Translations under genes and position numbers: made by a program
The notes under the pieces: model-generated
Told to the model about the DNA's origin: nothing
The model's database searches: none
Seen by the model: only the letters and a program-made list of their open reading frames with translations
Origin: an uncultured Burkholderiales bacterium
GTDB lineage: Bacteria; Pseudomonadota; Gammaproteobacteria; Burkholderiales; Burkholderiaceae_C
DNA length: 44,158 nucleotides
NCBI GenBank assembly: GCA_937873395.1
Contig: CALMYH010000068.1
Span: forward strand, 1 to 44,158
Direction: 5' to 3'
In this document: piece after piece, positions 1,477 to 30,320 of the stretch
How positions within the stretch are numbered: the first letter of the stretch is position 1
Layout: every line of letters starts with the position of its first letter

Positions 1477-2581
1477 TCAGTCAAAAAATTCAAGCAGTTG
1501 CCGGGCGGCGGTCGAGGCGGCCAGTTGGCCACCCTGCACCTGCTGCGTCAGAAGGTTCAGGTTTTCGCGAACCCGGGGGTGTTCGCGAAAGCGCTGCTTG
1601 AGGCCGGCATCGATGCGCTCCCACATCCAAGCGCGGGCCTGCTGCTGGCGACGTGCCGCCAGGCGGCCGTTGGCGGTCTGCAGGCGTCTGAACTCGCTCA
1701 CGGCCGTCCAGAACGTGTCCACGCCCTGCCCGTGCAGCGCGCTGATCTGGATTACCTGCGGATGCCAGATCTTCTCATCATGGTGCAAGTCCTGCGAGCC
1801 CCCACGCTCCCCCACTGCGTGAGGGTCGCTGCCCCCCGAGGGGGTGTGATCGCTCTTGGGGCGGCCCGGCGAGCGATCCGGGTTGCCATGCAGCCCAAGC
1901 AGGCGCAGCGACGAGGTGATCTGTGCCCGCGCGCGGGTGGCGGCGTCGGGGTCGATGTCGGCCTTGTTGATGACCACCAGATCGGCCAGCTCCATCACGC
2001 CCTTCTTGATCGCCTGCAAATCGTCGCCCGCGTTGGGCAACTGCAGCAGGCAGAACATGTCGGTCATGCCGTGGACAGCGGTTTCGCTTTGCCCCACGCC
2101 CACGGTCTCGACGATGACCACATCGTAGCCCGCCGCCTCGCAGACCAGCATGGCCTCACGCGTCTTTTCGGCCACGCCGCCCAGCGTGCCGCTGCTCGGG
2201 CTCGGGCGGATGTAGGCCTTCTCGTGCACCGAGAGGTGCTCCATGCGCGTCTTGTCGCCGAGGATGGAACCGCCCGACACCGACGAGGACGGATCGACCG
2301 CGAGTACCGCCACGCGGTGACCGAGGCCGATCAGATAAAGGCCGAGCGCCTCGATGAAGGTGCTCTTGCCCACGCCGGGCACGCCGCTGATGCCGAGCCG
2401 GAACGCGCCACCGGTGTGCGGCAGCAGCCGGGTCAGCAGCGCGTCGGCCTGCTGGCGGTGATCGGGGCGGGTCGACTCCAGCAGCGTGATGGCCTTGGCC
2501 ATCGCGCGGCGCTGTACGACCGGCGCACCGCCGACGATGCCCGCCTGGATCTGTTCAGGGGTCACGGATGTGTCCGGACGG

Positions 2582-2595
<14 letters not shown>
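1477..2595 (-). CDS. meaB: Methylmalonyl-CoA mutase-associated GTPase MeaB, with an in-frame repeat insertion
   Basis: G3E-type P-loop GTPase that protects and reloads methylmalonyl-CoA mutase with adenosylcobalamin. Visible motifs are the Walker A loop GVPGVGKST (about residues 71-79), [28 protein letters not shown], and the NKAD base-recognition motif (about 210-213). It lies immediately downstream of the mutase. The start is uncertain: TTG 2595 overlaps the mutase stop by 14 bases, while GTG 2565 (protein beginning VTPEQIQ) leaves a 16-base gap; neither has a clear ribosome site. At 372 codons it is about 40 longer than typical MeaB (about 330). The excess is a low-complexity, Pro/Gly/Ser-rich stretch at about residues 238-275 that coincides with a GC-rich palindromic DNA repeat, placed between the NKAD motif and the ISALHGQG segment. 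The frame stays open, so the protein is probably functional with a surface loop. Confidence 0.95.
1797..1878. repeat. GC-rich palindromic repeat inside meaB
   Basis: The stretch contains two nested inverted repeats: CACGC with GCGTG around 1803-1820, and a C-run/G-run hairpin (CCCCC, CGA, GGGGG) around 1832-1845, followed by a CTTGGGGCGGCCCGGCGA segment. This resembles the intergenic palindromic repeat that I recall as abundant in Comamonadaceae genomes. Here it sits in frame within meaB and accounts for the extra residues of the protein. No second copy is evident in this window, so the identification as a repeat family rests on memory of related genomes. Confidence 0.6.
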
Positions 2596-4744
<2,149 letters not shown>

Positions 4745-9781: not shown

Positions 9782-10960
<1,179 letters not shown>

Positions 10961-14626: not shown

Positions 14627-14744
14627 GCCGCAAGCATATACCCACCGGTGCTGCTCTGTACGACAATGAGCTGGCCGACCGCCACCGCCCGCCCCGGGAC
14701 CGGTGGGCAGCGGCCAGGCAACGTGCAGACCGACAGGCAGCTCC

Positions 14745-17585
14745 ATGGACGCACCGCACGCCAAAGACGCAGCACCCGGCTGGAGCCCGACGGCGCTCTG
14801 CCAGCTGGTCGCCCGTGCGCGCCATGACCTCTACCCCGAAGGGGCCGGTCACGGCGAGGTGGATCTGAACTGTTCGCTCGACCGCGATCTGGGGTTCGAC
14901 AGCCTGGGACGCATGGAGCTCCTGCTGCGCATCGAGGCGGCGACGGGTCTGGCACTGCCCGAGAACACGCTGGAAACCGCCGAAACGGTCGCCGACCTCT
15001 GGCAAGCCACCTGCCAGGGGCAAACCCGCCCGTCGACGCCCAGCCCGCTCGCCGAGGCCGCCTCGGCGGTCGATCTGTCAGGAACGGCAAGCGACGCCCG
15101 CGCCCCCGTCGGGCAAGCCCGGACCCTGCTTGACGTGCTGGATGCGCATCTGGAGGCCCATCCGGACCTGGTACAGATCGTCCATCTGGCCGGCGAGGTG
15201 GAGACCCCGCTCACCTACCGGCAGCTTCAGCAGGCCTCGCTGCGGATGGCCTGCGGCCTCCAGCAGGCCGGGCTGCGTCCCGGCCAGACCGTGGCCATCA
15301 TGCTGCCCACCTCGCCGGACTACTTCTTCACCTACCTGGCCATCCTGCGCGCCGGCGGAATCCCCGTGCCCATTTACCCGCCGGCGCGCCCTTCGCAGCT
15401 CGAAGACCATGTGCGGCGGCACACCGGCATTCTGGCCAACGCGCAAGCCACCTGCCTGGTCAGCGTGCCCGAGGCGATGCAGGTGGCACGCCTGCTGCAG
15501 GCCCGGGTGCCCGGCCTGCGCGCCCTGCACACGCCAGAGGAGCTGATGAACGCGGGCCAGGGACGCACCGTGTCCCCCGTCCGTGTGACCGAGGACGACG
15601 TGGCCTTCATCCAGTACACCTCGGGCAGCACCGGTCAACCCAAGGGCGTGACCCTGACCCATGCCAACCTGCTGGCCAACATCCGGGCCATGGCCCAGGC
15701 CATCGGAGCACGCCCCGACGACGTGTTCGTGAGCTGGTTGCCGCTCTATCACGACATGGGCCTGATCGGGGCCTGGCTGGGCAGCTTCACGGTCGGCTTT
15801 CGCCTGGTGGTGATGTCGCCGCTGGCCTTCCTGGGGCGTCCCAGGCGTTGGCTGGAGGCGATCTCCCGCCATGGCGGCACCCTGTCGGCCGGACCGAACT
15901 TTGCTTACGAGCTGTGCCTCAACCGCATCGACGACGAGGCGCTCGCCGGTCTGGACCTCAGCCGCTGGCGGCTGGCCTTCAACGGGGCCGAAGCGGTCGG
16001 CCCGGACACCGTGCTGCGCTTCGGGCAACGCTTCTCCCTCTGCGGACTGCCAGCCGATGCCATGACACCGGTTTACGGTCTGGCCGAATCCTCGGTCGGT
16101 TTGCTGTTTCCGCCTCTGGGGCGGGGCCCCCGCATCGACGCCATCGACCGCGAAGTCTTCGAGGCCGAACGTCGGGCGGTGCCCAGCCCGTCGGCGAATG
16201 CGCTGCGCTTCGTGGCCTGTGGCCATGCCCTCCCCGGACATGAGGTCCGCATTGTCGATGCCAGCAACCGGCCGGTGGGTGAGCGCATCGAGGGTCGGCT
16301 GGAGTTTCGCGGACCGTCCGCCACCAGCGGCTACTGGCGGGCACCCGAGCTCAGCGCCCGGCTGTTTGCCGACGAGAGCGGGCAATGGCTGGACACCGGC
16401 GACCGCGCCTACCTGGCCGAGGGCGATGTCTTTGTGACCGGTCGCGTCAAGGACATCGTCATCCGGGGCGGCCGCAACCTATACCCGCAGGAAATCGAGT
16501 CGGCCGTGGGCGAGGTGGCGGGCATCCGAAAGGGGTGCGTCGCGGTGTTCGGTCGCCGCGACGCCGGCAGCGGCACCGAGCGTCTGGTGGTCATGGCCGA
16601 GGCCAGCCCACGGACCAGCCAGAGCACCCAGGTCCTGCGCGAGGCGGTGGCACAGGCGGTGCTGTCGGCCATCGGTGAACCGGCCGACGAGATTCTGCTG
16701 GTTCCACCCCACACGGTGCTCAAGACATCCAGCGGCAAGGTTCGCCGTTCCGCCTGTCGGGAGCTGGCGGAACAGGGCTCGTGGCAGCTGCCGGCGAAGA
16801 GCGTGCGGATGCAGTGGCTGCGGCTGGCCGCCGGGGCTGCCCTGCTGCGATTGCGATATGCGGCGCAGACCCTGGACGGACTGGTGTTCGGCCTGCGGGC
16901 ACAGCTGGTGTTCTGGCTGATGGCACCGGCCGGATGGCTGATCACCGCACTCGCACCGAGCCGGCCCTCGGCCTGGCGATTCTGCCACCGGGCCGCCCGG
17001 CTGCTGCTGCGCCTGTCCGGCCTGCCCCTGGAGGTACGGGGCACCGAACACCTGCCTGAGGACGGTCGCGGGGTGCTGGTATCCAACCACGCCAGCTATC
17101 TGGACGGGCTGGTGCTGGTGGCGGCCCTGGAACGCCCGCACACCTTCATCGCCAAACGGGAACTGGCCGACCAGTTCGTGGCCGGCCGCTTCCTGCGCCG
17201 CCTCGGGGTCGCCTTTGTGGAACGTTTTGATCCACGGCGCAGTGTGGCCGACGCCCAGCAGATGACCGAACATGCCCGCTCCGGCTCACCGCTGCTGGTG
17301 TTCCCGGAGGGCACCTTTGTGGCGGCGCCCGGTCTGCTGCCCTTCCGGCTGGGCGGCTTTCTGGCGGCCAGCCACGCGCAGGTGCCCGTCATTCCCCTCA
17401 CCCTGGGCGGCACCCGCCAGCTGCTGGGGGCTGGATCCTGGTGGCCGCACCGGGCGATGCTCTCGGTTCACATCGGGCCGCCGCTCACGGCCGCGGCAGA
17501 CCTGACGCCGATGGCTGCTGCGGTCCAGTTGCGCGACCGGGCGCGCCGGCACATTGAGCGCGCCCTGGCCCGCACCGAAGGCTGA
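14745..17585 (+). CDS. Three-domain fusion: acyl carrier domain - acyl-AMP ligase - PlsC acyltransferase
   Basis: Protein of 946 residues from ATG 14745. An acyl carrier domain (about 15-90) has the phosphopantetheine site DLGFDSLGRME (Ser53). An adenylate-forming domain (about 125-680) has YTSGSTGQPKGV (291-302), SWLPLYHDMGLIG (330-342, characteristic of fatty acyl-AMP ligases), the VYGLAESS region, WLDTGD (548-553) and the A10 lysine in SSGKVRR (Lys665). After a hydrophobic segment (about 715-735) comes a PlsC domain with NHASYLD (781-787, catalytic His782 and Asp787) and FPEGTF (853-858). The parts imply acid activation, loading on the built-in carrier, and transfer to a lysophospholipid or similar acceptor at the membrane. 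E. coli Aas is a functional parallel, with PlsC first and no carrier domain. It is convergent with the MFS/2-oxoacid dehydrogenase operon. The substrate is unknown. Confidence 0.9.
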   Translation: MDAPHAKDAAPGWSPTALCQLVARARHDLYPEGAGHGEVDLNCSLDRDLGFDSLGRMELLLRIEAATGLALPENTLETAETVADLWQATCQGQTRPSTPSPLAEAASAVDLSGTASDARAPVGQARTLLDVLDAHLEAHPDLVQIVHLAGEVETPLTYRQLQQASLRMACGLQQAGLRPGQTVAIMLPTSPDYFFTYLAILRAGGIPVPIYPPARPSQLEDHVRRHTGILANAQATCLVSVPEAMQVARLLQARVPGLRALHTPEELMNAGQGRTVSPVRVTEDDVAFIQYTSGSTGQPKGVTLTHANLLANIRAMAQAIGARPDDVFVSWLPLYHDMGLIGAWLGSFTVGFRLVVMSPLAFLGRPRRWLEAISRHGGTLSAGPNFAYELCLNRIDDEALAGLDLSRWRLAFNGAEAVGPDTVLRFGQRFSLCGLPADAMTPVYGLAESSVGLLFPPLGRGPRIDAIDREVFEAERRAVPSPSANALRFVACGHALPGHEVRIVDASNRPVGERIEGRLEFRGPSATSGYWRAPELSARLFADESGQWLDTGDRAYLAEGDVFVTGRVKDIVIRGGRNLYPQEIESAVGEVAGIRKGCVAVFGRRDAGSGTERLVVMAEASPRTSQSTQVLREAVAQAVLSAIGEPADEILLVPPHTVLKTSSGKVRRSACRELAEQGSWQLPAKSVRMQWLRLAAGAALLRLRYAAQTLDGLVFGLRAQLVFWLMAPAGWLITALAPSRPSAWRFCHRAARLLLRLSGLPLEVRGTEHLPEDGRGVLVSNHASYLDGLVLVAALERPHTFIAKRELADQFVAGRFLRRLGVAFVERFDPRRSVADAQQMTEHARSGSPLLVFPEGTFVAAPGLLPFRLGGFLAASHAQVPVIPLTLGGTRQLLGAGSWWPHRAMLSVHIGPPLTAAADLTPMAAAVQLRDRARRHIERALARTEG

Positions 17586-17636: not shown

Positions 17637-18962
17637 TCAGCTTGACCGTTGTCCGTTGCTTTCATTGGCGGTGGCTGCGGCGGCGATGCCCCGTTGCACG
17701 TTGACCAGCGTGAGCAACACCAACCCGGCCACGAAGAACAGGCCGGTGGACACGATGGCCAGCCGGTGATTGCCATCGGTCAGCCAGGTGACCAGGCCGT
17801 AGGTCATCGGACCCACGATGGCCGACAGTCGGACAGCGAACATCCACAGCCCGAAGAACTCGGCGCGGCGCAGCTCGGGCGCCAGCACACCGGCCAGTGC
17901 ACGGCCGGCCGACTGGCTGCTGCCCATGCACAGACCGGCAATCACGGCCGCCACCCAGAACAGGCCCGGCCCGGTGGCCATCGCCGCCAGGATGGTCATG
18001 ACGATCCAGCCGGCCAGGGTGATGGCCAGCGCCGGCCGGTGACCGATCCGGTCCTGCACATAACCCCAGGCAAATGCACCGAGCGCCGCCGCGATGTTGA
18101 CCAGGAAAATCAGCATCATGGTCTCGGTCTGCTCGAAGCCCAGCACCTGCGCGGCGTACACGGCCGCCAGCGCGATCACCACCGAGATGCCGGCCTGGTA
18201 GGCCACCGAACAGGCCAGCAGTGCGGTGAAATCCTTGAACGAGCGAGCCTCGTGCCAGGTGCGCTGCAGACGGGCCAGTGACGCTTTTAGGCCCGCCGCT
18301 TCGGTGGCCCTGACCTGTGGCCGGGCACGTTCCTTGAGCAGCGCAAAGGTGACCAACGCCGAGGCACCGAAGATGCCGGCAGTGATCAGCATGGTCACCG
18401 GCACAAAATGCGAGGCGGGCAGGCCCTGCCCCTGGGCCCAGATCACATACCAGAGGCTGAGTCCCAGCGTGAGCATGCCCCCCAGGTAACCAAAGCTCCA
18501 GCCCCAACCCGAGACGCTCCCCATGCGGTCCTCCTGGGCCAGCTCGGGCAGAAAGGCGGCAATCAGGGACTCGCCGTAGGTGTAGAACACATTGGACAGG
18601 ACGATGGCCACCAGTGCCCAGGCCACATCCCCGGGTCCGGCGCCGGCCAGCGCGGCGGTGGCCACCACACAACCGAGCGTGGAGAGCACCAGCAGGCGCT
18701 TCTTGGCCGCGCGCAGGTCGGCATAGGCGCCGATGGCGGGCATGGTGAACATGACGATCAGGCTCGAGACCGCCAGCGCACTGGTCCAGGCCAGTGTGCC
18801 CCAGGCCTCGCCGCCGGCGATGCCTCCGACGAAGTAGGCGCTGAACACCGCCGTCAGCACCACGGTGGTGTAGCCGGAATTGGCGAAGTCGTACATGGCC
18901 CAGCCGAAGACCTCGCGCTTGCGCACGCCGGGCTTGAGGGCGTCTTGGGGAAACAGGGGCAT
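17637..18962 (-). CDS. MFS transporter of the UMF1/Atg22-like family
   Basis: Integral membrane protein of 441 residues with about 12 predicted helices. The N-terminal KREVFGWAMYDFANSGYTTVVLTAVFSAYF is the signature of the UMF1 family, related to yeast vacuolar Atg22 amino-acid effluxers. Start ATG 18962 (MPLFPQDALKPGVRKREV) fits the family; 21 upstream codons do not. It lies 75 bases after the acyl carrier protein gene in the same direction, with a plausible promoter in the gap, and faces the carrier-ligase-PlsC fusion. By analogy with the E. coli lplT-aas pair it could move a lipid or lipid precursor, but the family is not LplT and the cargo is unknown. Confidence 0.88.
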   Translation of the reverse strand: MPLFPQDALKPGVRKREVFGWAMYDFANSGYTTVVLTAVFSAYFVGGIAGGEAWGTLAWTSALAVSSLIVMFTMPAIGAYADLRAAKKRLLVLSTLGCVVATAALAGAGPGDVAWALVAIVLSNVFYTYGESLIAAFLPELAQEDRMGSVSGWGWSFGYLGGMLTLGLSLWYVIWAQGQGLPASHFVPVTMLITAGIFGASALVTFALLKERARPQVRATEAAGLKASLARLQRTWHEARSFKDFTALLACSVAYQAGISVVIALAAVYAAQVLGFEQTETMMLIFLVNIAAALGAFAWGYVQDRIGHRPALAITLAGWIVMTILAAMATGPGLFWVAAVIAGLCMGSSQSAGRALAGVLAPELRRAEFFGLWMFAVRLSAIVGPMTYGLVTWLTDGNHRLAIVSTGLFFVAGLVLLTLVNVQRGIAAAATANESNGQRSS

Positions 18963-19003
18963 GGCCAGGGGGGCGACGGGCGCCGTTGCTGCAGCTGGCC
19001 GCC

Positions 19004-19032
19004 AGTGTAGTGGCCGGCCGGTCAATTGTCAG
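19004..19032 (-). promoter_or_regulatory. Candidate sigma-70 promoter for the MFS gene
   Basis: On the minus strand CTGACA (19032-19027) and TACACT (19009-19004) are spaced by exactly 17 bases, about 42 bases before the MFS start codon. This suggests that the transporter can be expressed separately from the upstream operon. Confidence 0.4.
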
Positions 19033-19037
19033 GCGGA

Positions 19038-19280
19038 CTAGCCCTGCCCTTGCAGATACGCCTGCAGGCCGGCCAGGGTGAAGAGTTTCGGGTAATCGCT
19101 TTCCGGAATATTGATGCCGCTGCCCTGGCTCAGGCCGATGATGAAATTCAGGAAGTCCATCGAGTCGAGGTCCAGCGCCTCACGCAGGTCTTCGTGCTCG
19201 GCGACCGTGCCCAGGTCGGCTTCGGGGGCAATGCCGGCCAGGACATCGCCGGCCAGCTGGCGGATCTCGGATGGGTTCAT
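19038..19280 (-). CDS. Free-standing acyl carrier protein
   Basis: Carrier protein of 80 residues starting at ATG 19280 (MNPSEIRQLAGDV), preceded by GGAG; an ATG at 19295 also fits the frame but overlaps that ribosome site. The phosphopantetheine attachment serine is Ser40 in LDLDSMDFLNFI. This is not the housekeeping fatty-acid AcpP, which has the DSLDTVE context; it resembles carriers of dedicated pathways. It starts 21 bases after the E2 stop codon, so it is made together with the 2-oxoacid dehydrogenase. It could hold the acyl group made by the complex or receive one from a ligase; which is not shown by the sequence. Confidence 0.88.
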   Translation of the reverse strand: MNPSEIRQLAGDVLAGIAPEADLGTVAEHEDLREALDLDSMDFLNFIIGLSQGSGINIPESDYPKLFTLAGLQAYLQGQG

Positions 19281-19301
19281 GCTTCCACTCCTCATGAAGA
19301 C

Positions 19302-20504
19302 TCAAAGCTGTTCGGGTTTCTGCAGCGCCTGCGCCACGGCAGCCAGCAGCTGGCCGCCCAGGTGTCCGTCGCTGGTACGGTGGTCGGCAGCCAGGCTGCA
19401 CTGCACCAGTGGCCGGACCACAAGGGCTCCGTCGACGACCCAGGGACGGTCGGCGACACGCCCGAAACCCACGATGGCCACCTGGGGCGGATAGATCACG
19501 CCCTGCACGCGCTCGGCGCCCCGGTCGCCCAGGCTGGTGACGGTGATGGTCGGATCGGTGAGTTCGGAACTTCGCAGTCCGCCGGCGCGGGCCCGCTGAA
19601 CGAGGTCGCGCAGAGCCGTCATCAGTTGCGGCAGGGACTGCCGGTCGGCATGGCGGATGGCCGGAGCGATCAGCCCACCCCCGCGCAGGGCAACCGCCCA
19701 GCCGATGTGGATCTCCTCGGACGCCACGAGCCGGCCGTCCACGCAGAAACCGTTGAGTTGGGGTACGGCCCGCAGGCCGACTGCCACCGCTTTGAGCAGC
19801 AGCACCGCCGGCAGCAGCCGCTCGGCGGGCGGCCGCTCTCGGTTGTAGGCCTCGATCCAGGACAAGGCCGACCCGACGTCGATCGTCTCGTCGAGGTAGT
19901 AATGGGGAATTTCGCGCTTGGAGCGCGCCATGGCGGTGGCGATGGCCTGGCGCATCTGCGCCGGGTCGAAGCCGACCGGGCGCCGGGCGGCTGCCGGAGA
20001 AACGCGCTCCGTCATCGCCTGTTCGACATCGGCACGGATCACGGCCCCGTCGGCGCCGGTCCCCCTGAGCGCGGCCGTGTCCAGACCGGCCTGGGCGGCG
20101 AGCCAGCGGGCTGCCGGCGAGACACGGACCCGGTCGGCGCCGCGCGATGGCGGCGGCGCCCTCCTGGCCACCGGCTCCGGCGCAGGACGGGCGTCCTGAG
20201 CATCGGCCGTCTGCGGGGAAACTGGCGCAACCGGGCCTGCAGGCGGAGCGGTTGCAGGCGCTCCCGCATCGCCGGGTTGACGCACCCGCGCCAGCACCGC
20301 ACCCACCGGCAAGGTCTGTCCGAGGGGCACCAGATCGTCGATCACGCCTTCCAGAAAGCACTCGACATCGATGGCACCCTTGTGGGTCTCCACCACCGCC
20401 ACCACATCGCCCGAGTGCACCCGGTCACCGGCCTTCACCAGCCATTGCACAACCTGACCGGTCTCCATGTCCGCGCCGAGAGCCGGCATCGTGAATTCGG
20501 CCAT
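19302..20504 (-). CDS. 2-oxoacid dehydrogenase E2 (dihydrolipoamide acyltransferase)
   Basis: Core acyltransferase of a pyruvate/acetoin/branched-chain 2-oxoacid dehydrogenase complex, 400 residues. One lipoyl domain (about 1-75) has its lysine at Lys42 in VETHKGAIDVE; a Pro/Ala linker follows, then a peripheral subunit-binding domain (about 126-162, RVSPAARWLAAQAGLD) and a catalytic domain ending in AADHRTSDG with His375 and Asp379. All catalytic residues are present. It starts two bases after the E1 beta stop and precedes a free acyl carrier protein. No E3 gene lies in the operon, so dihydrolipoamide dehydrogenase must be supplied from elsewhere. Which 2-oxoacid is used cannot be told; pyruvate or acetoin are the best guesses. 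Confidence 0.93.
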   Translation of the reverse strand: MAEFTMPALGADMETGQVVQWLVKAGDRVHSGDVVAVVETHKGAIDVECFLEGVIDDLVPLGQTLPVGAVLARVRQPGDAGAPATAPPAGPVAPVSPQTADAQDARPAPEPVARRAPPPSRGADRVRVSPAARWLAAQAGLDTAALRGTGADGAVIRADVEQAMTERVSPAAARRPVGFDPAQMRQAIATAMARSKREIPHYYLDETIDVGSALSWIEAYNRERPPAERLLPAVLLLKAVAVGLRAVPQLNGFCVDGRLVASEEIHIGWAVALRGGGLIAPAIRHADRQSLPQLMTALRDLVQRARAGGLRSSELTDPTITVTSLGDRGAERVQGVIYPPQVAIVGFGRVADRPWVVDGALVVRPLVQCSLAADHRTSDGHLGGQLLAAVAQALQKPEQL

Positions 20505-20506
20505 GA

Positions 20507-21499
20507 TCAGCCCCGCACCGGCACGATCTCGCGCACCGCCGACACGATATCCGGCACCGACGGCAGGGCTGCCGCTTCCAGGTGCAGGGCGTAGGGCACC
20601 GGCACCTCGCGGCCGCAGACACGCCGCACGGGCGCGTCCAGTTCATAGAGGGCGTCTTCGGCGAGGCGGGCCGCGATCTCGGCCGAGACCGAGCCGCTCT
20701 TCCAGCCTTCGTCGACGATGACCACACGGCGGGTGCGGGAAACGGAAGCCAGCACCGTTTCCATGTCGAGGGGGCGCAACATGCGCAGGTCGACCACCTC
20801 GGCCTCGATGCCCTGCGCCACCAGCTCGGTGGCGGCCTGCAGGCATTTGGGCAGGCTGTTGCCATAGGTCACCAGAGTCACATCGCGACCCTCCCGCCGA
20901 ACCCGGGCGTGTTGCAGGTCGACGGCCTGGACATCGGGGTCGAGTTCGCCCTCGACGTTGTACAGCACGATGTGTTCGAAGATCAGCACCGGGTTGGGGT
21001 CGGCCAGGGCAGCGGCCAGCATGTGGCGCGCGTCCTCGACGGTGCCCGGCACCGCGACCTTGAGGCCCGGAATGTGGGCATACCAGCCTTCCAGGCTGTG
21101 CGAGTGCTGCGCCGCGAGTTGCCGCCCGCCGCCGGTGGCCATGCGGATCACCAGCGGGACGGCGAACTGGCCGCCGGTCATGTGCGGCAAGGTGGCCGCG
21201 TTGTTCATGATCTGGTCCAGCGCCAGCAGGCTGAAATTGCAGGTCATGATCTCGACGATCGGCCGCAGCCCGGCCAGCGCCGCACCGACACCGATGCCGG
21301 TGAATCCGTTCTCGGCCAGCGGGGTGTCGATGATGCGTTGGGCGCCGAACTCTTCCAGCAGGCCCTTGGTCACCCCGTAACACCCTCCATAGTGGCCCAC
21401 GTCCTCGCCCATGACGAAGGTGCGGGGGTCGGCCGACAAGGCGTCGCGCAAGGCCTGGCGGCAGGCCTCGCGGTAGGTCAGGCGCAGGGGGGCGTTCAT
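20507..21499 (-). CDS. 2-oxoacid dehydrogenase E1 component, beta subunit
   Basis: Transketolase-like beta chain of the thiamine-diphosphate E1 heterotetramer, 330 residues from ATG 21499. Family landmarks include [54 protein letters not shown], and in the C-terminal domain [14 protein letters not shown] and [16 protein letters not shown]. Its start overlaps the E1 alpha stop by four bases (ATGA), so the two subunits are translationally coupled in equal amount. The GAGGAGG ribosome site lies inside the end of the alpha gene. A much longer open frame running to 22450 is only the extension of this frame through the alpha gene and is not a gene. Confidence 0.93.
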
Positions 21500-22490
21500 G
21501 CGGCCTCCTCCTGGACGACCCGTTCCATGAGGACAAACCGCTCCAGGTCGTCCAAGGGTTCCAGGGTCCCCGCCTCGGCAAATGCCACGGCGTCGGCGAT
21601 TTCGTTGTCCACCGACTGTTCGATCGCTGCCAGCTGCGTGTCGTTGGCCTGGTGGTTGTCCAGCATCCACTGGCGCAGGCGGGCGAGCGGATCGATGCGT
21701 CGCCACTGTTCGACTTCTTCCCGGCTGCGATAGGCTTGGGTGTCGAACATGGAATGGGCACGGAAGCGGTAGGTCCGCGCCTCCAGCAGGACCGGGCCCT
21801 GCCCCTGACGAATGTGGGTGACGGCGCGCCGCGCTGCGGCCTCCATCTGTACCGGGTCCATGCCGTCGACCTGCTCGGCCGTCATCCGGTAGGCGGCTGC
21901 CTTGCGCCAGATGTCGGTTTCCGCGTCCGATTCGGCCAGCGGCACGCCCATCGCGTAAAGGTTGTTCTCGCACACGAACAGCACCGGCAGCTTCCACAGC
22001 TGCGCCAGGTTCAGGGTTTCGTGGAACACGCCTTCGGCCACCGCACCCTCGCCGAAGAAACAGGCGGTGACCGCGCCGGGGCGCAGACGCTGGTCGGCCA
22101 TGGCAATGCCGGCCGCCAGCGGCAGGCCGCCGCCCACGATGGCGTTGCCACCATAGAAGCGGTGTTCGCGGCTGAACAGGTGCATCGATCCGCCCCGCCC
22201 CAGGCAACAACCTTCCCGTTTGCCCAGCATCTCGGCCATCAGGGGGCGCATCGGCACCCCGTGCGCGAGGGCCTGGCCATGTTCGCGATAGGTGGCCACG
22301 ATGGCGTCCCGAGGCTCCAGCGCGGCCGCCACGCCGACCGCGACGGCCTCCTCGCCATCGTACAGGTGCAGAAAGCCTCGAATCTTCTGCGCCTGGTAGA
22401 GCTCCACGCACTTGGCCTCGAAACGCCGGATGCGCAGCATCTGGCGCCACAGGTGCAGCAAGTGTTCACGATCGAGATGGATCTTGTCGG

Positions 22491-22494
<4 letters not shown>
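21496..22494 (-). CDS. 2-oxoacid dehydrogenase E1 component, alpha subunit
   Basis: Thiamine-diphosphate-binding chain of 332 residues, of the PdhA/AcoA type. It shows [21 protein letters not shown], the [12 protein letters not shown] loop, GRGGSMHLF, and the thiamine motif starting at [15 protein letters not shown] and ending at CENN, where the usual GDG is [12 protein letters not shown] near residue 270 is the phosphorylation-loop region of eukaryotic homologues. The start overlaps the acetyl-CoA synthetase stop by four bases. The GRGGSMH and [17 protein letters not shown] stretches favour a pyruvate or acetoin dehydrogenase over a branched-chain enzyme, but this is a judgement by eye. Confidence 0.93.
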
Positions 22495-24272
<1,778 letters not shown>

Positions 24273-24274
24273 GC

Positions 24275-25063
24275 TCAATCCTCCGACTTGGCGGCGCCCG
24301 GAACGCCCGGCTGCCGGTTCAACAGGCGCCCCAGCAGATCCATGGGCAACGGGAACACGATGGTGGAGGCGCGGTCGCCGGCCACCTGGGTCATGGTCTG
24401 CAGGTAGCGCAGCTGCATGGCCTCGGGCTGCGCCGACAACATCTGCGCGGCCTCCAACAAGGCGACAGCCGCCTGCTTCTCGCCTTCGGCATGGATCACC
24501 TTGGCCCTTCGTTCACGTTCGGCTTCGGCCTGACGCGCTATCGCCCGCACCATCGACTCGTTCAGGTCGATGTGCTTGATCTCGACATTGGTCACCTTGA
24601 TGCCCCAGGCATCGGTCTGGGAGTCCAGAATCTGCTGCACATCCAGGTTCAGGCGCTCGCGTTCGGCCAGCATTTCGTCGAGCTCGTGCTTGCCCAGGAC
24701 CACCCGCAAGGTGGTCTGGGCCAGTTGGCTGGTGGCCATGAGGTAGTTCTCGACCTGGATGATGGCCTTCTGGGGGTCGATGACCCGAAAGAACACCACC
24801 GCATTGACCTTGACCGAGACGTTGTCGCGCGAGATCACGTCCTGCGGTTCCACGTCCATGGTCACCACGCGAAGGTCGACCCGAACCATCTGCTGCAGGC
24901 CCGGGATGACGATCACCAGGCCGGGGCCCTTGACCTTCCAGAACCGCCCCAGCTGGAAAACCACGCCTCGTTCGTATTCGCGCAGGATGCGAAACGAGGC
25001 ACCCAGCAGCACCAGGACCAGAGGCAGCAGAATGCCGCCCACACCGATGTTGAAATCCAGCAT
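24275..25063 (-). CDS. Slipin (stomatin-like SPFH/band 7 membrane protein)
   Basis: Membrane scaffold protein of 262 residues. One N-terminal membrane helix ([16 protein letters not shown]) is followed by [22 protein letters not shown], which is the start of the SPFH domain, [24 protein letters not shown], and a C-terminal coiled-coil/oligomerisation part with [20 protein letters not shown]. These are typical of bacterial slipins, which form large ring assemblies and mark membrane microdomains. The ATG overlaps the nfeD stop by one base (TGATG). Pairing of slipin and NfeD is widely conserved; linkage to acetyl-CoA synthetase and a 2-oxoacid dehydrogenase is not something I know. Confidence 0.93.
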
Positions 25064-26541
25064 CACGACGTCTCCTTTTCCGAACCAGGGGAATCCTCTT
25101 CGAGCGGTGCCACGTGCAGCACCAGGCCGTCCACACGCAGCACCCGCACCCGTTGCCCGCTGACCAGCGCCTGTCCGGAGCACACCACGTGCCAGCGCTC
25201 ACCGGCCACCTGTGCCCAGGCCTGGGTACCTTCCACCACGGTGACCTCGCCCAAAGCACCCACCAGACCCTCGGCACCACTGACCACCCTTGCCCGACGC
25301 GCCCGCAAGGCCATGCTGCCCCCCAGAAGCACTGCCGCACCGGCCGTCAGCGAGATGCCGAACAGCAGCGGCAGCGGCACGCCCATGCCGGGCACCTCGC
25401 GGTCGAACAGCAACAGGCCACCGGCCATGAAGGCAATGACACCACCCACGCCGAGCACACCGAAAGCCGGCGTGAGGAGCTCGGCCGCCAGCAGCGCAAA
25501 ACCCAGCAGGATCAGGGCCAGCGCGGCGTAGTTCACCGGCAGCAGCTGCAAGGCGAACATCGCCAGCAACAGGCAGATGGCGCCCACCGTGCCGGGAATG
25601 CCGAACCCGGGCGAGGAGAACTCGAACATCAACCCGTAAACACCGATCATCAGCAGGATGAGGGCGAAGCTGGGGTTGGCAATCACCCCCAGCAAGCGGT
25701 GGCGCCAGTCGGGCGGCTGCATGACCACCGTCAGGCCGGAGGTGGCCAGCCGGATTTCGCCCTGGGCGGTCCGGATGCTGCGGCCATCGATCTGCTGCAG
25801 CAGGTCGGACAGATCCCGGGCCACCAGATCAACCACCCTCTGATCCAGGGCCTCTGCCGCTGTCAGGCTGACCGCTTCGCGCACCGCCCGCTCGGCCCAT
25901 TCGGCATTGCGCCCGCGCTCCTTGGCCAGCCCCCGGATGAAGGCCGCCGCATCGTTGACCTGCTTGGCGGTCATGGCGTCTGCCGGTGAAGCCGCTGGCC
26001 CGGGCTTCTCTTTGTCTCCCTCTTCCTTGCCTCCGGCCGGAGCTGTCGGTTGAGGCGCCCCCGGCATTCCGATGGCCACCGGCGTGGCTGCGCCCAGCGT
26101 GGTGGCCGGCGCCATGGCCGCGACATGACTGGCGTAAAGGATATACGTGCCCGCGCTGGCTGCGCGGGCGCCGGCCGGTGTCACGTAGGTCACCACCGGT
26201 ACGGGGGACGCCATGATGGCCTGGATGATCTGGCGCATCGACAGGTCCAACCCGCCCGGCGTGTCCATCTGCAGGACCACGAGCACGGCCCCGTTCCGCC
26301 TGGCCTGCTCCAGACCCCGCACGACGTAGTCGGCCGTGGCAGGGCCGATCGCCCCCTCGATGCTGAGCACCGGCGCGGTGGCGGATCGGGCAGACGGCAG
26401 GCCGGGATACAAGCAACCCAGCAGCGCCAGCGCGATCGGCAGCCACAATCGCACCCTGCACGCGTGCGCTGAAGCCGCGAAATGCCTGAGAAGCAAGAAG
26501 GACTGCCGCAAGACCTGTCTCCTGTCTTGGGGTCTGACCAT
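25063..26541 (-). CDS. nfeD: NfeD-family membrane protein with ClpP-like serine protease domain (NfeD1b)
   Basis: Long-form NfeD of about 492 residues. A basic N-terminus and hydrophobic helix ([13 protein letters not shown]) form a signal sequence or anchor. The ClpP-fold protease domain has [17 protein letters not shown] and the AASAGTYI segment holding the probable catalytic serine; a lysine in MTAKQVND fits the second member of the Ser-Lys dyad. Between them is an unusual Pro/Gly/Lys/Glu-rich insert (about 30 residues, 25987-26075). Four or so membrane helices and a C-terminal OB-fold ([14 protein letters not shown] to [10 protein letters not shown]) follow. In archaea this protease cuts stomatin, so it likely acts on the slipin encoded next. 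The start is uncertain: ATG 26541 is preferred over 26613. Confidence 0.9.
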
Positions 26542-26597: not shown

Positions 26598-26626
26598 AGC
26601 CGGGGCCACTCAATCGGCCCCAGGCT
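26598..26626. terminator. Hairpin between the OYE gene and nfeD, possible terminator
   Basis: GGGGCC (26602-26607) and GGCCCC (26616-26621) form a stem with an eight-base loop, extended by AGCC/GGCT across a one-base bulge. There is no T run, so termination is only suggested by its position downstream of the Old Yellow Enzyme stop codon on the minus strand. Confidence 0.35.
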
Positions 26627-26693
26627 GATGCAAGTCAAGGAAATAAGCCTTGAACGGCCACGGGCGCGCACCGCAGGCGCCCGACGCGGCCCC

Positions 26694-27857: not shown

Positions 27858-28751
27858 TCACCCCCGCAATGCCCCCGCAACGGCGTTTGCAATGCTCACC
27901 GCATTGGTCGGGTGCGCCACGGCATCGGTGCTCCAGAACGCGCCCACCCCGGCCTGGTGTATTCGCGCCAGCGCGGCCTCTTCCAGCAGGGCATGGGTCA
28001 CCGCCACGTCGACCGAGCGGGCACCAGCGGCCTTCAGCAGTTCGGCAGCCCGCACCAGGGTCTGACCGGAGCTGGCCACGTCGTCGATCAGGACCACCGC
28101 CTCGCCGGCCAGCGCCATCTTGGGCAACACGATGTCAACCTCCCGGTCGCCATGGCGGGTCTTGTGACAGACGGCATGCTTCCAGCCATGCAGACGCGCC
28201 GCGCTGGCCACCCATTGCAGGGACTCCTCGTCAGGACCCAGCAGCACCACCGGTCCGCGCACACGCGCGATGTGCTCGGCCAGCAGGGGCGCACCACTGA
28301 GTACCACGGCCCGCGCCACCGGCACCGCCTCCTGCAGGGTGGCCACGCGATGCAGGTGGGGGTCGACCGTGATCACCGCATCGAACAGCCCGGCCAGAAA
28401 GCGCCCGACAATGCGCTGGCTGACCGCCTCGCCCGGCCGGAAGGCCATGTCCTGGCGCATGTAACCCAGGTAAGGGGCCACCAGGGTCAGCTCTTGCGCG
28501 CCCAGGTCCCGAGCCGTCTGCGCCACCAGCAGCAGCTCCACCAGCTTTTCGTTCGGCTGGTGCAGGCCACGCCAGACCACCACCCGGGCCGGCAACGCAG
28601 GCGGCAGGCACAGGCGCAGCTCGCCGTCCGGGAAGCGGTGGCGTTCAATGGCCAGCGCCGCCAATCCGGCCGAACTGGCCACCGCCGTGGCAAGGGCCTG
28701 CTCCTCGGGCACGTACAGCAGCGCACCGCCGGTCTCGCGAGTTGGCTGCAT
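27858..28751 (-). CDS. prs: Ribose-phosphate pyrophosphokinase-like protein
   Basis: PRPP synthetase-family protein of 297 residues. It shows RFPDGELRL near the N-terminus, PYLGYMRQDMAFRPGEAVSQ for ATP binding, the VDPHLHR metal/ribose-phosphate segment, a flexible-loop HKTRHGDREV, and the PRPP loop LIDDVASSGQTL. Loop sequences differ from the housekeeping bacterial enzyme (KRR and DDIIDTGGT) and look closer to archaeal class III enzymes; this is by eye. It begins three bases after the DeoA-family gene, so the two form an operon. It probably links ribose phosphates released by that phosphorylase to PRPP, but it could be an inactive or altered-specificity paralogue of the main Prs. Confidence 0.85.
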   Translation of the reverse strand: MQPTRETGGALLYVPEEQALATAVASSAGLAALAIERHRFPDGELRLCLPPALPARVVVWRGLHQPNEKLVELLLVAQTARDLGAQELTLVAPYLGYMRQDMAFRPGEAVSQRIVGRFLAGLFDAVITVDPHLHRVATLQEAVPVARAVVLSGAPLLAEHIARVRGPVVLLGPDEESLQWVASAARLHGWKHAVCHKTRHGDREVDIVLPKMALAGEAVVLIDDVASSGQTLVRAAELLKAAGARSVDVAVTHALLEEAALARIHQAGVGAFWSTDAVAHPTNAVSIANAVAGALRG

Positions 28752-28754
28752 GAC

Positions 28755-30320
28755 TCAGAACTCCACAAACACCTGCGGCATCTGCTCGGGTGCTCCGATG
28801 CGGTAGCCGCTGTGGCGCACACAGGCCTGGCGCGCAAATTCCAGGTCTGACGGGTAGGCGGCGTGCACCCGGTACAGGGGCTCGCCCCGCCGCACCGTTT
28901 CGCCCAGCTTGCGCAGCAGGTCGACCCCGGCGGCCTTGACCTTGGGCGCTCCCGCCAGGCGCGCAATCTGCGCGACCTGCAGGTTGTCGATGCCGATGAC
29001 GGTGCCGTCGGCATCCGCCGGCACATCGAAGCTCAACGCACCCAAGGGCGGATGCTGGTGCTTGAAGCCGCGCCCGCCCTGGGCCTCGATGATGGCCCGC
29101 ATGCGGGCCAGCGCCCGACCCGAGTCCAGGATGTCGCGCGCGATGTGAAAGCCGTCGCCACCCCGCACATCCGGGCTGCATTCGATGATGCGGCCGGCCA
29201 GGCGCAGCGATTTCTGCCGCAGGTCATCCGGCGCCGCCGGGTCGTTTTCCAGCACCTGCATCACGTCGCGCGCTTCCAGCATGGGGCCGATGCCGCGCCC
29301 GATGGGCTGGCGGCCATCGGTGATCACCACGTCCAGCGACAGGTGCATGCGCTGCGCCACATACTCGAACAGTCGGCGCAGGCGTTGGGCCTCGGGCATG
29401 GAGCGCACCTTGGCGGTCGGCCCGATCGGGATATCCAGCACCAGGTGGGTCGCACCGGCCGCGATCTTCTTGGACAGGATGGAAGCCACCATCTGGCCGG
29501 GCGAGTCGATGGACAGGGGGCGTTCGACAGAGATCAGCACGTCATCGGCCGGAGACAGGTCGGCCGTGCCCCCCCAGGCCAGACAGCCCCGGTGGGCACG
29601 CACGATGTCGGTCAGATGATCGAACGGCAGTTCCACATTGGCCAGCACCTCCATGGTGTCGGCCGTGCCGGCCGGCGACGTGATGGCGCGTGACGAGGTC
29701 TTGGGAAACACCAGGCCATAGGCCGCCACGATGGGCACCACCAGCATGGAGGTGCGGTTGCCGGGAATGCCACCGATGCAGTGCTTGTCGACCACCAGCG
29801 GCTCGCGCCAGTCCAGCCGTCGGCCCGACGCCACCATGGCCTCGCTCAGGAAATACACCTCCTCCCGGTCCAGCTCGCTGCGGTTGCAGGCCACCACAAA
29901 GGCGGTCAGTTCGATCTTGGAATAGCGCAGGTCCGCGATGTCGCGAACGATGGCCCGAAAATCCTCGCGACCCAGGCGCTCGCCGTTGATCTTGCGAAAC
30001 AGGGCCGGAATCGACTCCGGGGGCTCAGCCTGCGAGACCGTGGCCAGGTGCCCGTCGGGCACCTGCAACTGGGCAAACGCATCTTCAGACACACCGAGCT
30101 CGTCGCAGCCGACGATGCGCTCGTCGTCCACCACATTCAGCGTGGCCAGGATGCGCCGACCATTGGCCCGCACTTCCACCTTGGACAGGGCCTGAAAGCC
30201 CTCGGCCCGGTAGACGGCGCAGTCGCGGTGCAGGTAGGCGACGTTTTCGTGGTACGTGTCAATCGCCACCCGGCGCAGGCTCAGCGTGCCGGTGGCATGG
30301 TCGGGGTTTTCTCGGGACAT
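28755..30320 (-). CDS. deoA: Thymidine phosphorylase-family protein, AMP phosphorylase-like
   Basis: Nucleoside/nucleotide phosphorylase of 521 residues, about 80 longer than E. coli DeoA. The N-terminal extension ([22 protein letters not shown]) resembles the small extra domain of archaeal AMP phosphorylases. The core has [42 protein letters not shown], the phosphate-loop serines and threonines, and a C-terminal barrel-sandwich region ([28 protein letters not shown]). Archaeal relatives turn AMP, CMP or UMP plus phosphate into base and ribose 1,5-bisphosphate. The bacterial family is often annotated as putative thymidine phosphorylase. The adjacent PRPP-synthetase-like gene supports a nucleotide salvage role. 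Substrate is inferred, not shown. Confidence 0.9.

What the first reader, a model, noticed from the sequence alone, without database searches (positions are those of the whole stretch)
17637..26541. Candidate undescribed system: nfeD-slipin-acsA-E1a-E1b-E2-ACP-MFS run facing the ACP-ligase-PlsC gene
Six genes from nfeD to E2 are joined by overlaps or gaps of 0-2 bases, so they are made as one unit. They combine membrane-microdomain proteins, acetate activation and a 2-oxoacid dehydrogenase; an acyl carrier protein follows 21 bases later and a transporter after it. The convergent neighbour is a lipid-acyltransferase fusion. Nothing in central metabolism requires this combination. A membrane-associated route that makes short acyl groups and builds them into a special lipid or secreted ester would explain all members. 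The housekeeping PDH normally lies elsewhere, so this is probably a second, dedicated complex.
Basis: partly seen in the sequence, partly recalled or inferred. Interest (0 to 1): 0.75.

Follow-up and report, generated by a model that had tools for sequence, protein, structure and literature searches.

The report
Pyruvate dehydrogenase with its own ACP
A five-gene set that pairs an extra pyruvate dehydrogenase with an acetate-activating enzyme and its own acyl carrier protein is kept together in distant bacteria, often near stress and low-oxygen genes, and may park acetyl groups on a protein when oxygen is short.

Summary
The gene run is real, but the conserved unit is smaller: acsA, E1alpha, E1beta, E2, ACP. 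These five occur together in Pseudomonadota, Actinomycetota and Chloroflexota, and their E2s form one clade (99/99) apart from aceF and sucB. Of 23 E2s outside it, none had such an ACP in the stretch examined. The ACP is modelled as an ACP fold, with an invariant DSxD serine (44 of 44). NfeD, slipin and MFS belong to the window's clade; the ACP-ligase-PlsC fusion is an optional partner. FNR-type boxes precede the operon in two sets of proteobacterial loci (exact in 8 of 32 and 8 of 20; background 0.7% and 2.3%). Usp, Hsp20 or phosphoribosyltransferase-fusion genes lie near 6 of 20 loci fetched later, and near 0 of 27 control loci. Best reading: a low-oxygen PDH that hands acetyl from pyruvate to its own ACP, with AcsA handling acetate. 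Transfer to ACP is inferred from glycolyl-ACP cassettes, not shown.

The parts
22491..24278 (-). acsA, AMP-forming acetate-CoA ligase (core gene 1)
   Evidence: NF003313 885 bits, cut-off 729; WWQ[ST]ETG and SGKxxRR motifs in 44 of 44 orthologues
21496..22494 (-). E1 alpha, PDH type (core gene 2)
   Evidence: PF00676 290 bits; TIGR03182 436 bits, cut-off 394; best solved relatives human PDH E1 alpha
20507..21499 (-). E1 beta (core gene 3)
   Evidence: NF006667 407 bits, cut-off 321 (scanned within the longer ORF 20507-22450)
19302..20504 (-). E2: lipoyl domain, E3-binding domain, acyltransferase (core gene 4)
   Evidence: PF00364, PF02817, PF00198 over cut-off; lipoyl K42 and catalytic H375 invariant in 26 of 26 rows; one clade with other ACP-linked E2s
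19038..19280 (-). stand-alone acyl carrier protein (core gene 5); ORF opens at 19295
   Evidence: DS[MFLI]D motif in 44 of 44 orthologues; model pLDDT 90.6; the Foldseek rows shown are ACPs or complexes that hold one
24275..25066 (-). slipin (SPFH/Band 7), partner in the window's clade
   Evidence: PF01145 134 bits; near the block in 9 of 47 loci
25063..26541 (-). NfeD1b-type membrane protease-like protein, partner in the window's clade
   Evidence: PF24961, PF25145, PF01957; near the block in 7 of 47 loci
26625..26638 (-). FNR-type box TTGACTTGCATCAG upstream of nfeD (one mismatch to TTGAYNNNNRTCAA)
   Evidence: the same place holds TTGATRTGGGTCAG in three close relatives L051, L054, L055
17637..19025 (-). 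MFS / Atg22-like transporter, clade-specific neighbour
   Evidence: PF11700 140 bits; in 4 of 47 loci
14703..17585 (+). ACP - fatty-acyl-AMP ligase - PlsC fusion, convergent optional partner
   Evidence: PF00550, PF00501, PF01553; near the block in 8 of 47 loci, incl. Cupriavidus L088 and Saccharopolyspora L069, L079

Best explanation
The core is a five-gene cassette, acsA-pdhA-pdhB-E2-ACP, for handling C2 units under low oxygen or stress. E1 decarboxylates pyruvate and passes the acetyl group to the lipoyl arm of E2; E3 from elsewhere in the genome re-oxidises the arm, giving NADH. E2 then hands the acetyl group to the 4'-phosphopantetheine of the dedicated ACP instead of, or as well as, CoA. 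AcsA activates acetate (or works backwards on the acetyl thioester). In Proteobacteria an FNR-type regulator switches the operon on at low oxygen. Shown here: gene set, order, common descent, intact active-site motifs, ACP fold, FNR-type boxes, stress-gene neighbourhood. Inferred: pyruvate as substrate (from family), ACP as acetyl acceptor (from the company it keeps and from glycolyl-ACP cassettes), and what acetyl-ACP is used for, which is open.
For: All five genes in 43 of 47 loci (42 by tblastn; L084 by ACP HMM); the other 4 are cut by contig ends. All 22 later loci have the five in one order. E2 and ACP overlap or abut in 30 of 44 and lie within 60 bases in 43 of 44. ACP-linked E2s form one clade, 99/99; 0 of 23 other E2 loci have the ACP. 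ACP serine 44 of 44; ACP fold. FNR-type boxes: exact 8 of 32 vs 0.7% background, up to one mismatch 19 of 32 vs 3.8%; second set exact 8 of 20 vs 2.3%. Own genome has a Crp/Fnr protein with CxxCxxxxxC and ETVSR. Usp/Hsp20/PRTase-fusion genes near 6 of 20 later loci, 9 of 25 other proteobacterial, 9 of 12 actinobacterial, 0 of 27 controls. SclQ1-4 and QncL/M/N: E1-, E2-like proteins plus ACP give glycolyl-ACP (passages of PMC6335953).
Against: No biochemistry: acetyl-ACP is not shown, and E2 keeps the ordinary fold family and may simply use CoA. No E2-ACP gene fusion was found in the loci held. 13 of 32 and 10 of 20 proteobacterial loci lack a box at one mismatch, 0 of 11 actinobacterial loci have an exact FNR box, and OsdR-like boxes are not enriched there (exact 1 of 11, one mismatch 4 of 11 vs 19% background). 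The window's own box has one mismatch. 30 of 45 proteobacterial block loci have no Usp/Hsp20/PRTase fusion nearby, the window among them. No ketosynthase or other evident user of acetyl-ACP recurs beside the block (the family lists were capped at 25).
Confidence: 0.48

Rival explanations
1. An ordinary auxiliary PDH plus acetyl-CoA synthetase that raises acetyl-CoA when oxygen is low. The ACP is a helper: for example it carries octanoate for lipoylation of the E2, or stabilises the complex.
For: E1, E2 and AcsA keep the motifs of normal acetyl-CoA enzymes; the E3-binding domain is kept; lipoylation uses octanoyl-ACP (recalled).
Against: Other E1-E2 loci manage without an ACP (0 of 23); no lipA/lipB was seen next to the block in the annotated plasmid loci; the genome has another small-ORF ACP elsewhere (C24).
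Confidence: 0.27
2. Energy-conserving acetate formation: pyruvate to acetyl thioester (NADH), then AcsA run backwards (AMP + PPi to ATP + acetate), as the low-oxygen counterpart of Pta-AckA.
For: The lxa low-oxygen locus of Burkholderia carries acetate kinase and phosphate acetyltransferase with Usp, heat-shock, cation-ATPase and PpsA genes (Table 2 of PMC4981469), so acetate chemistry suits such islands; block loci share Usp, Hsp20, P-type ATPase neighbours.
Against: Does not need an ACP; the backward AcsA reaction needs PPi and is known to me only from recall.
Confidence: 0.12
3. One reading: a membrane-bound route with nfeD, slipin, MFS and the ACP-ligase-PlsC fusion as integral parts, making a special lipid or secreted ester.
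For: Tight packing in this clade; the fusion recurs beside the block in Cupriavidus (directly upstream, same strand), Saccharopolyspora and another Burkholderiales family, and co-occurs more than expected (p = 0.002).
Against: Outer genes are absent near most blocks; 23 of 31 genomes with the fusion lack the block and 18 of 26 with the block lack the fusion.
Confidence: 0.09
4. An acetoin dehydrogenase complex with acetate re-activation by AcsA.
For: E1alpha-E1beta-E2 layout and AcsA also fit acetoin use (recalled).
Against: E1alpha passes the PDH model TIGR03182 (436 vs 394 bits) and its E2 is of PDH type (TIGR01349 best, below cut-off); nearest solved E1alpha is human PDH; no ACP is expected.
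Confidence: 0.04

Closest known systems
Pyruvate dehydrogenase complex (alpha-beta E1, E2, E3)
   Same: E1alpha, E1beta, E2 with lipoyl, E3-binding and acyltransferase domains
   Different: own clade; always-linked ACP and acsA; E3 gene usually absent from the block (an E3-like gene follows it in L067); clade-specific E2 residues such as G252, R229, M295
Glycolyl-ACP cassettes of natural-product clusters (SclQ1-4, QncL/M/N; NapB/NapD recalled)
   Same: E1-like, E2-like and ACP proteins made together; C2 unit moved from a thiamine/lipoyl system to an ACP
   Different: those sit in peptide-antibiotic clusters and take the C2 unit from a ketose phosphate, per PMC6335953 passages; here PDH-type E1, acsA in the block and no synthetase cluster
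lxa low-oxygen-activated locus of Burkholderia
   Same: Usp, heat-shock, cation ATPase, PpsA neighbours; CRP/FNR-type regulators proposed
   Different: Table 2 of PMC4981469 lists acetate kinase and phosphate acetyltransferase but no PDH, acsA or ACP
DevR/DosR and OsdR dormancy regulons of Actinomycetota
   Same: Usp, Hsp20, P-type ATPase, phosphoribosyltransferase-fusion, nitroreductase genes around actinobacterial blocks
   Different: the passages seen of PMC5069765 do not list this block; OsdR-like sites found exact only at L090
Aas/FadD32-like acyl-ACP and fatty-acyl-AMP ligases (for the fusion)
   Same: ACP, AMP ligase and PlsC acyltransferase domains
   Different: single fused protein, family of its own, found in 31 of 300 Burkholderiales genomes

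Membership tests
Pyruvate dehydrogenase complex | alpha-beta E1 passing a PDH model | tested here: met
   TIGR03182 436 bits vs cut-off 394; NF006667 407 vs 321
Pyruvate dehydrogenase complex | E2 passing a curated PDH E2 model | tested here: not met
   best TIGR01349 208 bits, cut-off 445
Pyruvate dehydrogenase complex | lipoyl lysine, catalytic His, E3-binding domain | tested here: met
   K42 and H375 invariant in 26 rows, P130/A132 invariant; PF02817 over cut-off
Pyruvate dehydrogenase complex | activity on pyruvate with CoA as acceptor | not testable with these tools
   needs enzyme assay
Glycolyl-ACP cassette (Qnc/Scl type) | ACP gene joined to E1- and E2-like genes | tested here: met
Glycolyl-ACP cassette (Qnc/Scl type) | common descent with QncL/M/N or SclQ1-4 | not tested
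   their sequences were not at hand
Glycolyl-ACP cassette (Qnc/Scl type) | part of a non-ribosomal peptide cluster | tested here: not met
   no such cluster among the window genes scanned or in the annotated plasmid loci
Acyl carrier protein | four-helix fold with serine at the start of helix II | tested here: met
   helix 45-59 starts at S45; pLDDT 90.6; best match TM 0.75-0.79 to an ACP
Acyl carrier protein | phosphopantetheinylation | not testable with these tools
   needs mass spectrometry
FNR regulon | FNR-type box upstream | tested here: met
   enriched in two proteobacterial sets; window's box has one mismatch
FNR regulon | oxygen-dependent expression | not testable with these tools
   needs expression data
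DosR/OsdR regulon (Actinomycetota) | DosR/OsdR palindrome upstream | tested here: inconclusive
   exact in 1 of 11 (L090), relaxed pattern not enriched
lxa locus | block is listed in the described locus | tested here: not met
   Table 2 of PMC4981469
Acetoin dehydrogenase | E1alpha closer to AcoA than to PDH | tested here: inconclusive
   PDH model passed and PDB nearest is PDH; no tree with named AcoA rows was made

The most novel reading that the evidence does not exclude
A new kind of 2-oxoacid dehydrogenase whose physiological product is acetyl-S-ACP rather than acetyl-CoA: a low-oxygen acetyl store or signal, kept apart from the CoA pool, loaded from pyruvate (E1-E2) or acetate (AcsA), and spread between phyla as a dormancy cassette.
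Probability: 0.33. Interest if true: 0.82.

Novelty: new variant of a known kind. Interest (0 to 1): 0.62.

Why it matters
Pyruvate dehydrogenase is textbook central metabolism with CoA as acceptor. A separate clade that carries its own ACP and AcsA through at least three phyla, under FNR-type boxes in Proteobacteria and in dormancy-type islands in Actinomycetota, points to an undescribed way of handling acetyl groups when respiration stops. It gives a concrete, testable candidate for what non-growing aerobes do with pyruvate, and the Proteobacteria, Actinomycetota and Chloroflexota copies allow comparison in harmless laboratory species.

Tried and rejected
Acetoin dehydrogenase: E1alpha passes the PDH model and is nearest to PDH among solved structures. 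E2-ACP gene fusion as decisive link: none in the loci held; a second ACP position printed for L122 was an artefact. OsdR/DosR boxes in Actinomycetota: not enriched. RNA families and tRNAs in the window: none. Papers naming the block: none recognised in searches (open-access PMC only), nor in passages of PMC3759415, PMC6127331, PMC9104464, PMC5934665; PMC3966863 held none of the terms asked for. Sass 2013 (lxa) is not held and is known here only through other papers. PSBD and lipoyl motif patterns were too strict (13 and 24 of 41) and were replaced by alignment columns. The neighbour tallies used mechanically chosen ORFs and show only the top 25 families.

Rows dropped before counts: from the 47-locus set, L039, L046, L047 (copies of L056, L072, L075), L042 (3.6-kb contig), and L052, L053, L085 (outside the clade). 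From FNR set 1: L064, L079, L082 (no usable upstream) and L067 (Chloroflexota, no hit). From FNR set 2: L105 and L124 (acs start off the contig); with them one search printed 9 and 12 of 22, without them 8 and 10 of 20. From the tree: partial or duplicate rows listed; L081 was labelled noACP there by score only (its E2 reads in two frames) though an ACP follows it. Binomial p-values treat loci as independent, which they are not. The stress-gene queries were taken from some of the block loci, so only the 20 loci L105-L124 are independent of them; the control loci were 20 aceF/sucB regions plus 7 other E1-E2 regions, with 1 P-type ATPase hit and no Usp, Hsp20 or PRTase-fusion hit.
Full report
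What is there. The window is contig C68 of a 3.70-Mb, 183-contig genome (99.5% complete). Nearest named relatives of the block are Hydrogenophaga and unnamed Betaproteobacteria. On the minus strand lie nfeD, slipin, acsA, E1alpha, E1beta, E2, ACP and an MFS gene, and convergent to them an ACP / fatty-acyl-AMP-ligase / PlsC fusion.

The second complex. PF00198 finds three E2 genes in the genome: two on contig C40 and this one. Both C40 E2s fall in the clades outside the ACP-linked one (L006, L007), and each is followed within about 1.5 kb by an E3 over the curated cut-off. PF00550 finds another ACP-sized frame on C24 (173 codons), two hits in very long frames on C43 and the fusion's own domain. 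So the window's complex is an addition to the housekeeping set.

The conserved unit. I took E2 as the handle. In 60 relatives, 14 genomes have an orthologue, 10 of the 36 in the genus and 4 of 24 elsewhere in the order. A scan of 84,980 species genomes gave 32 loci, 31 of the clade. With plasmid records this makes 47 non-duplicate loci; 42 show acsA, E1alpha, E1beta, E2 and ACP by tblastn, a 43rd (L084) has its ACP by HMM, and the other four are cut by contig ends. In one (L062) acsA lies on the opposite strand just after the ACP. Twenty-two further loci, 20 from a draw of 300 Burkholderiales (26 positive) and two plasmids, have all five in the same order. E2 and ACP lie within 60 bases in 43 of 44 measured pairs and overlap or abut in 30. 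In Leisingera E1alpha and E1beta are annotated as one 1,998-base gene.

One clade. A maximum-likelihood tree of 66 E2s puts all 42 ACP-linked rows, and L081 (split frame, ACP present), in one clade with 99/99 support. The 23 other E2s, among them aceF and sucB types, have no hit to the ACP model in their loci, most of which reach 1.5 kb either side. Actinobacterial rows fall in two places: one group of nine (100/99), and Mycobacterium sp. MAG plus Rhodococcus inside a mostly Burkholderiales group (100/99), which speaks for transfer between phyla.

Are the parts intact? AcsA keeps the WWQ[ST]ETG and SGKxxRR motifs in 44 of 44; E1alpha a TPP motif in 45 of 45. E2 keeps its lipoyl lysine and catalytic histidine in 26 of 26, although one row (L067) departs from DHRxxDG. 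The ACP keeps DS[MFLI]D in 44 of 44, is acidic (pI about 4), and its model (pLDDT 90.6) matches ACPs, with the serine at the start of helix II. Positions that set this E2 clade apart from other E2s include R229, G252, G276, M295 and G348 (65 of 65 rows each); what they do is unknown.

Control. The motif TTGAYNNNNRTCAA (FNR type, consensus recalled) lies within 400 bases of the first gene exactly in 8 of 32 proteobacterial loci, against 0.7% of same-sized windows of those loci, and with up to one mismatch in 19 of 32 against 3.8%. In a second set of 20 usable loci the counts are 8 and 10, against 2.3% and 4.6%. The window has TTGACTTGCATCAG at 26625-26638, upstream of nfeD; three close relatives have TTGATRTGGGTCAG there. 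The genome encodes a Crp/Fnr protein with an N-terminal CxxCxxxxxC and ETVSR. Actinomycetota have no exact FNR box (0 of 11), and OsdR-like palindromes are exact only at L090. Herbaspirillum Fnr proteins are known to switch on Usp and PHB genes at low oxygen (passages of PMC5934665).

Company. Usp, Hsp20 or phosphoribosyltransferase-fusion genes lie near 6 of 20 later Burkholderiales loci, 9 of 25 other proteobacterial loci and 9 of 12 actinobacterial loci, against 0 of 27 control loci (the first set is the one independent of the queries). In five of six annotated plasmid blocks a Usp or Hsp20 gene is listed (the exception is Cupriavidus). The mix (Usp, Hsp20, P-type ATPase, phosphoribosyltransferase-erythromycin-esterase, nitroreductase, PpsA) resembles the DevR/OsdR regulons (passages of PMC5069765) and the lxa locus of Burkholderia (Table 2 of PMC4981469). 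lxa carries acetate kinase and phosphate acetyltransferase but not this block.

Outer genes. nfeD is near the block in 7 of 47 loci, slipin in 9, MFS in 4, fusion in 8, and none of the four in the 22 later loci. The fusion co-occurs with the block in 8 genomes of 300 (2.7 expected; p = 0.002 without correction for kinship), on one contig in two. It is a recurrent but optional partner.

How it probably works. E1 and E2 should oxidise pyruvate and load acetyl on the lipoyl arm; the E3-binding domain argues for NADH formation with an outside E3. The new element is the ACP. In SclQ1-4 and QncL/M/N an E1-like, an E2-like and an ACP protein bring a C2 unit onto the ACP (passages of PMC6335953). By analogy this E2 would acetylate its ACP. 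AcsA can feed or drain the same pool. This last part is inference. A plain auxiliary PDH with a helper ACP is the main rival.

Noticed in passing
window 27858-30320 (-): A PRPP-synthetase-like gene next to a pyrimidine/AMP-phosphorylase-like gene. Prs-like genes lie near 8 of 45 proteobacterial block loci and 0 of 27 controls (one query came from a block locus).
   Followed up: partly
window 14703-17585 (+): ACP / fatty-acyl-AMP-ligase / PlsC fusion, a family of its own: 31 of 300 Burkholderiales genomes, also in Saccharopolyspora and Cupriavidus.
   Followed up: partly
L068, L089: Mycobacterium sp. MAG and Rhodococcus plasmid copies of the E2 nest inside a mostly Burkholderiales group (100/99): probable transfer between phyla.
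   Followed up: partly
L099:5986-7983: Leisingera plasmid: E1alpha and E1beta in one 1,998-base gene within the same block.
   Followed up: no
L067:7162-8565: In a Dehalococcoidia MAG an E3-like flavoprotein directly follows the ACP.
   Followed up: no
window 1477-4744 (-) and 9782-10960 (-): MeaB and methylmalonyl-CoA mutase, and a thiolase, upstream in the same contig: other acyl-CoA genes, with no link tested.
   Followed up: no
window, whole: 16 loose FNR-type matches (up to 2 mismatches) against 4.8 expected from shuffles; most lie inside genes.
   Followed up: no
L062:180-947, L084:12983-14146: Slipin-like SPFH genes (50% identical) also lie near two actinobacterial blocks, so the slipin link may be older than the window's clade.
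   Followed up: no
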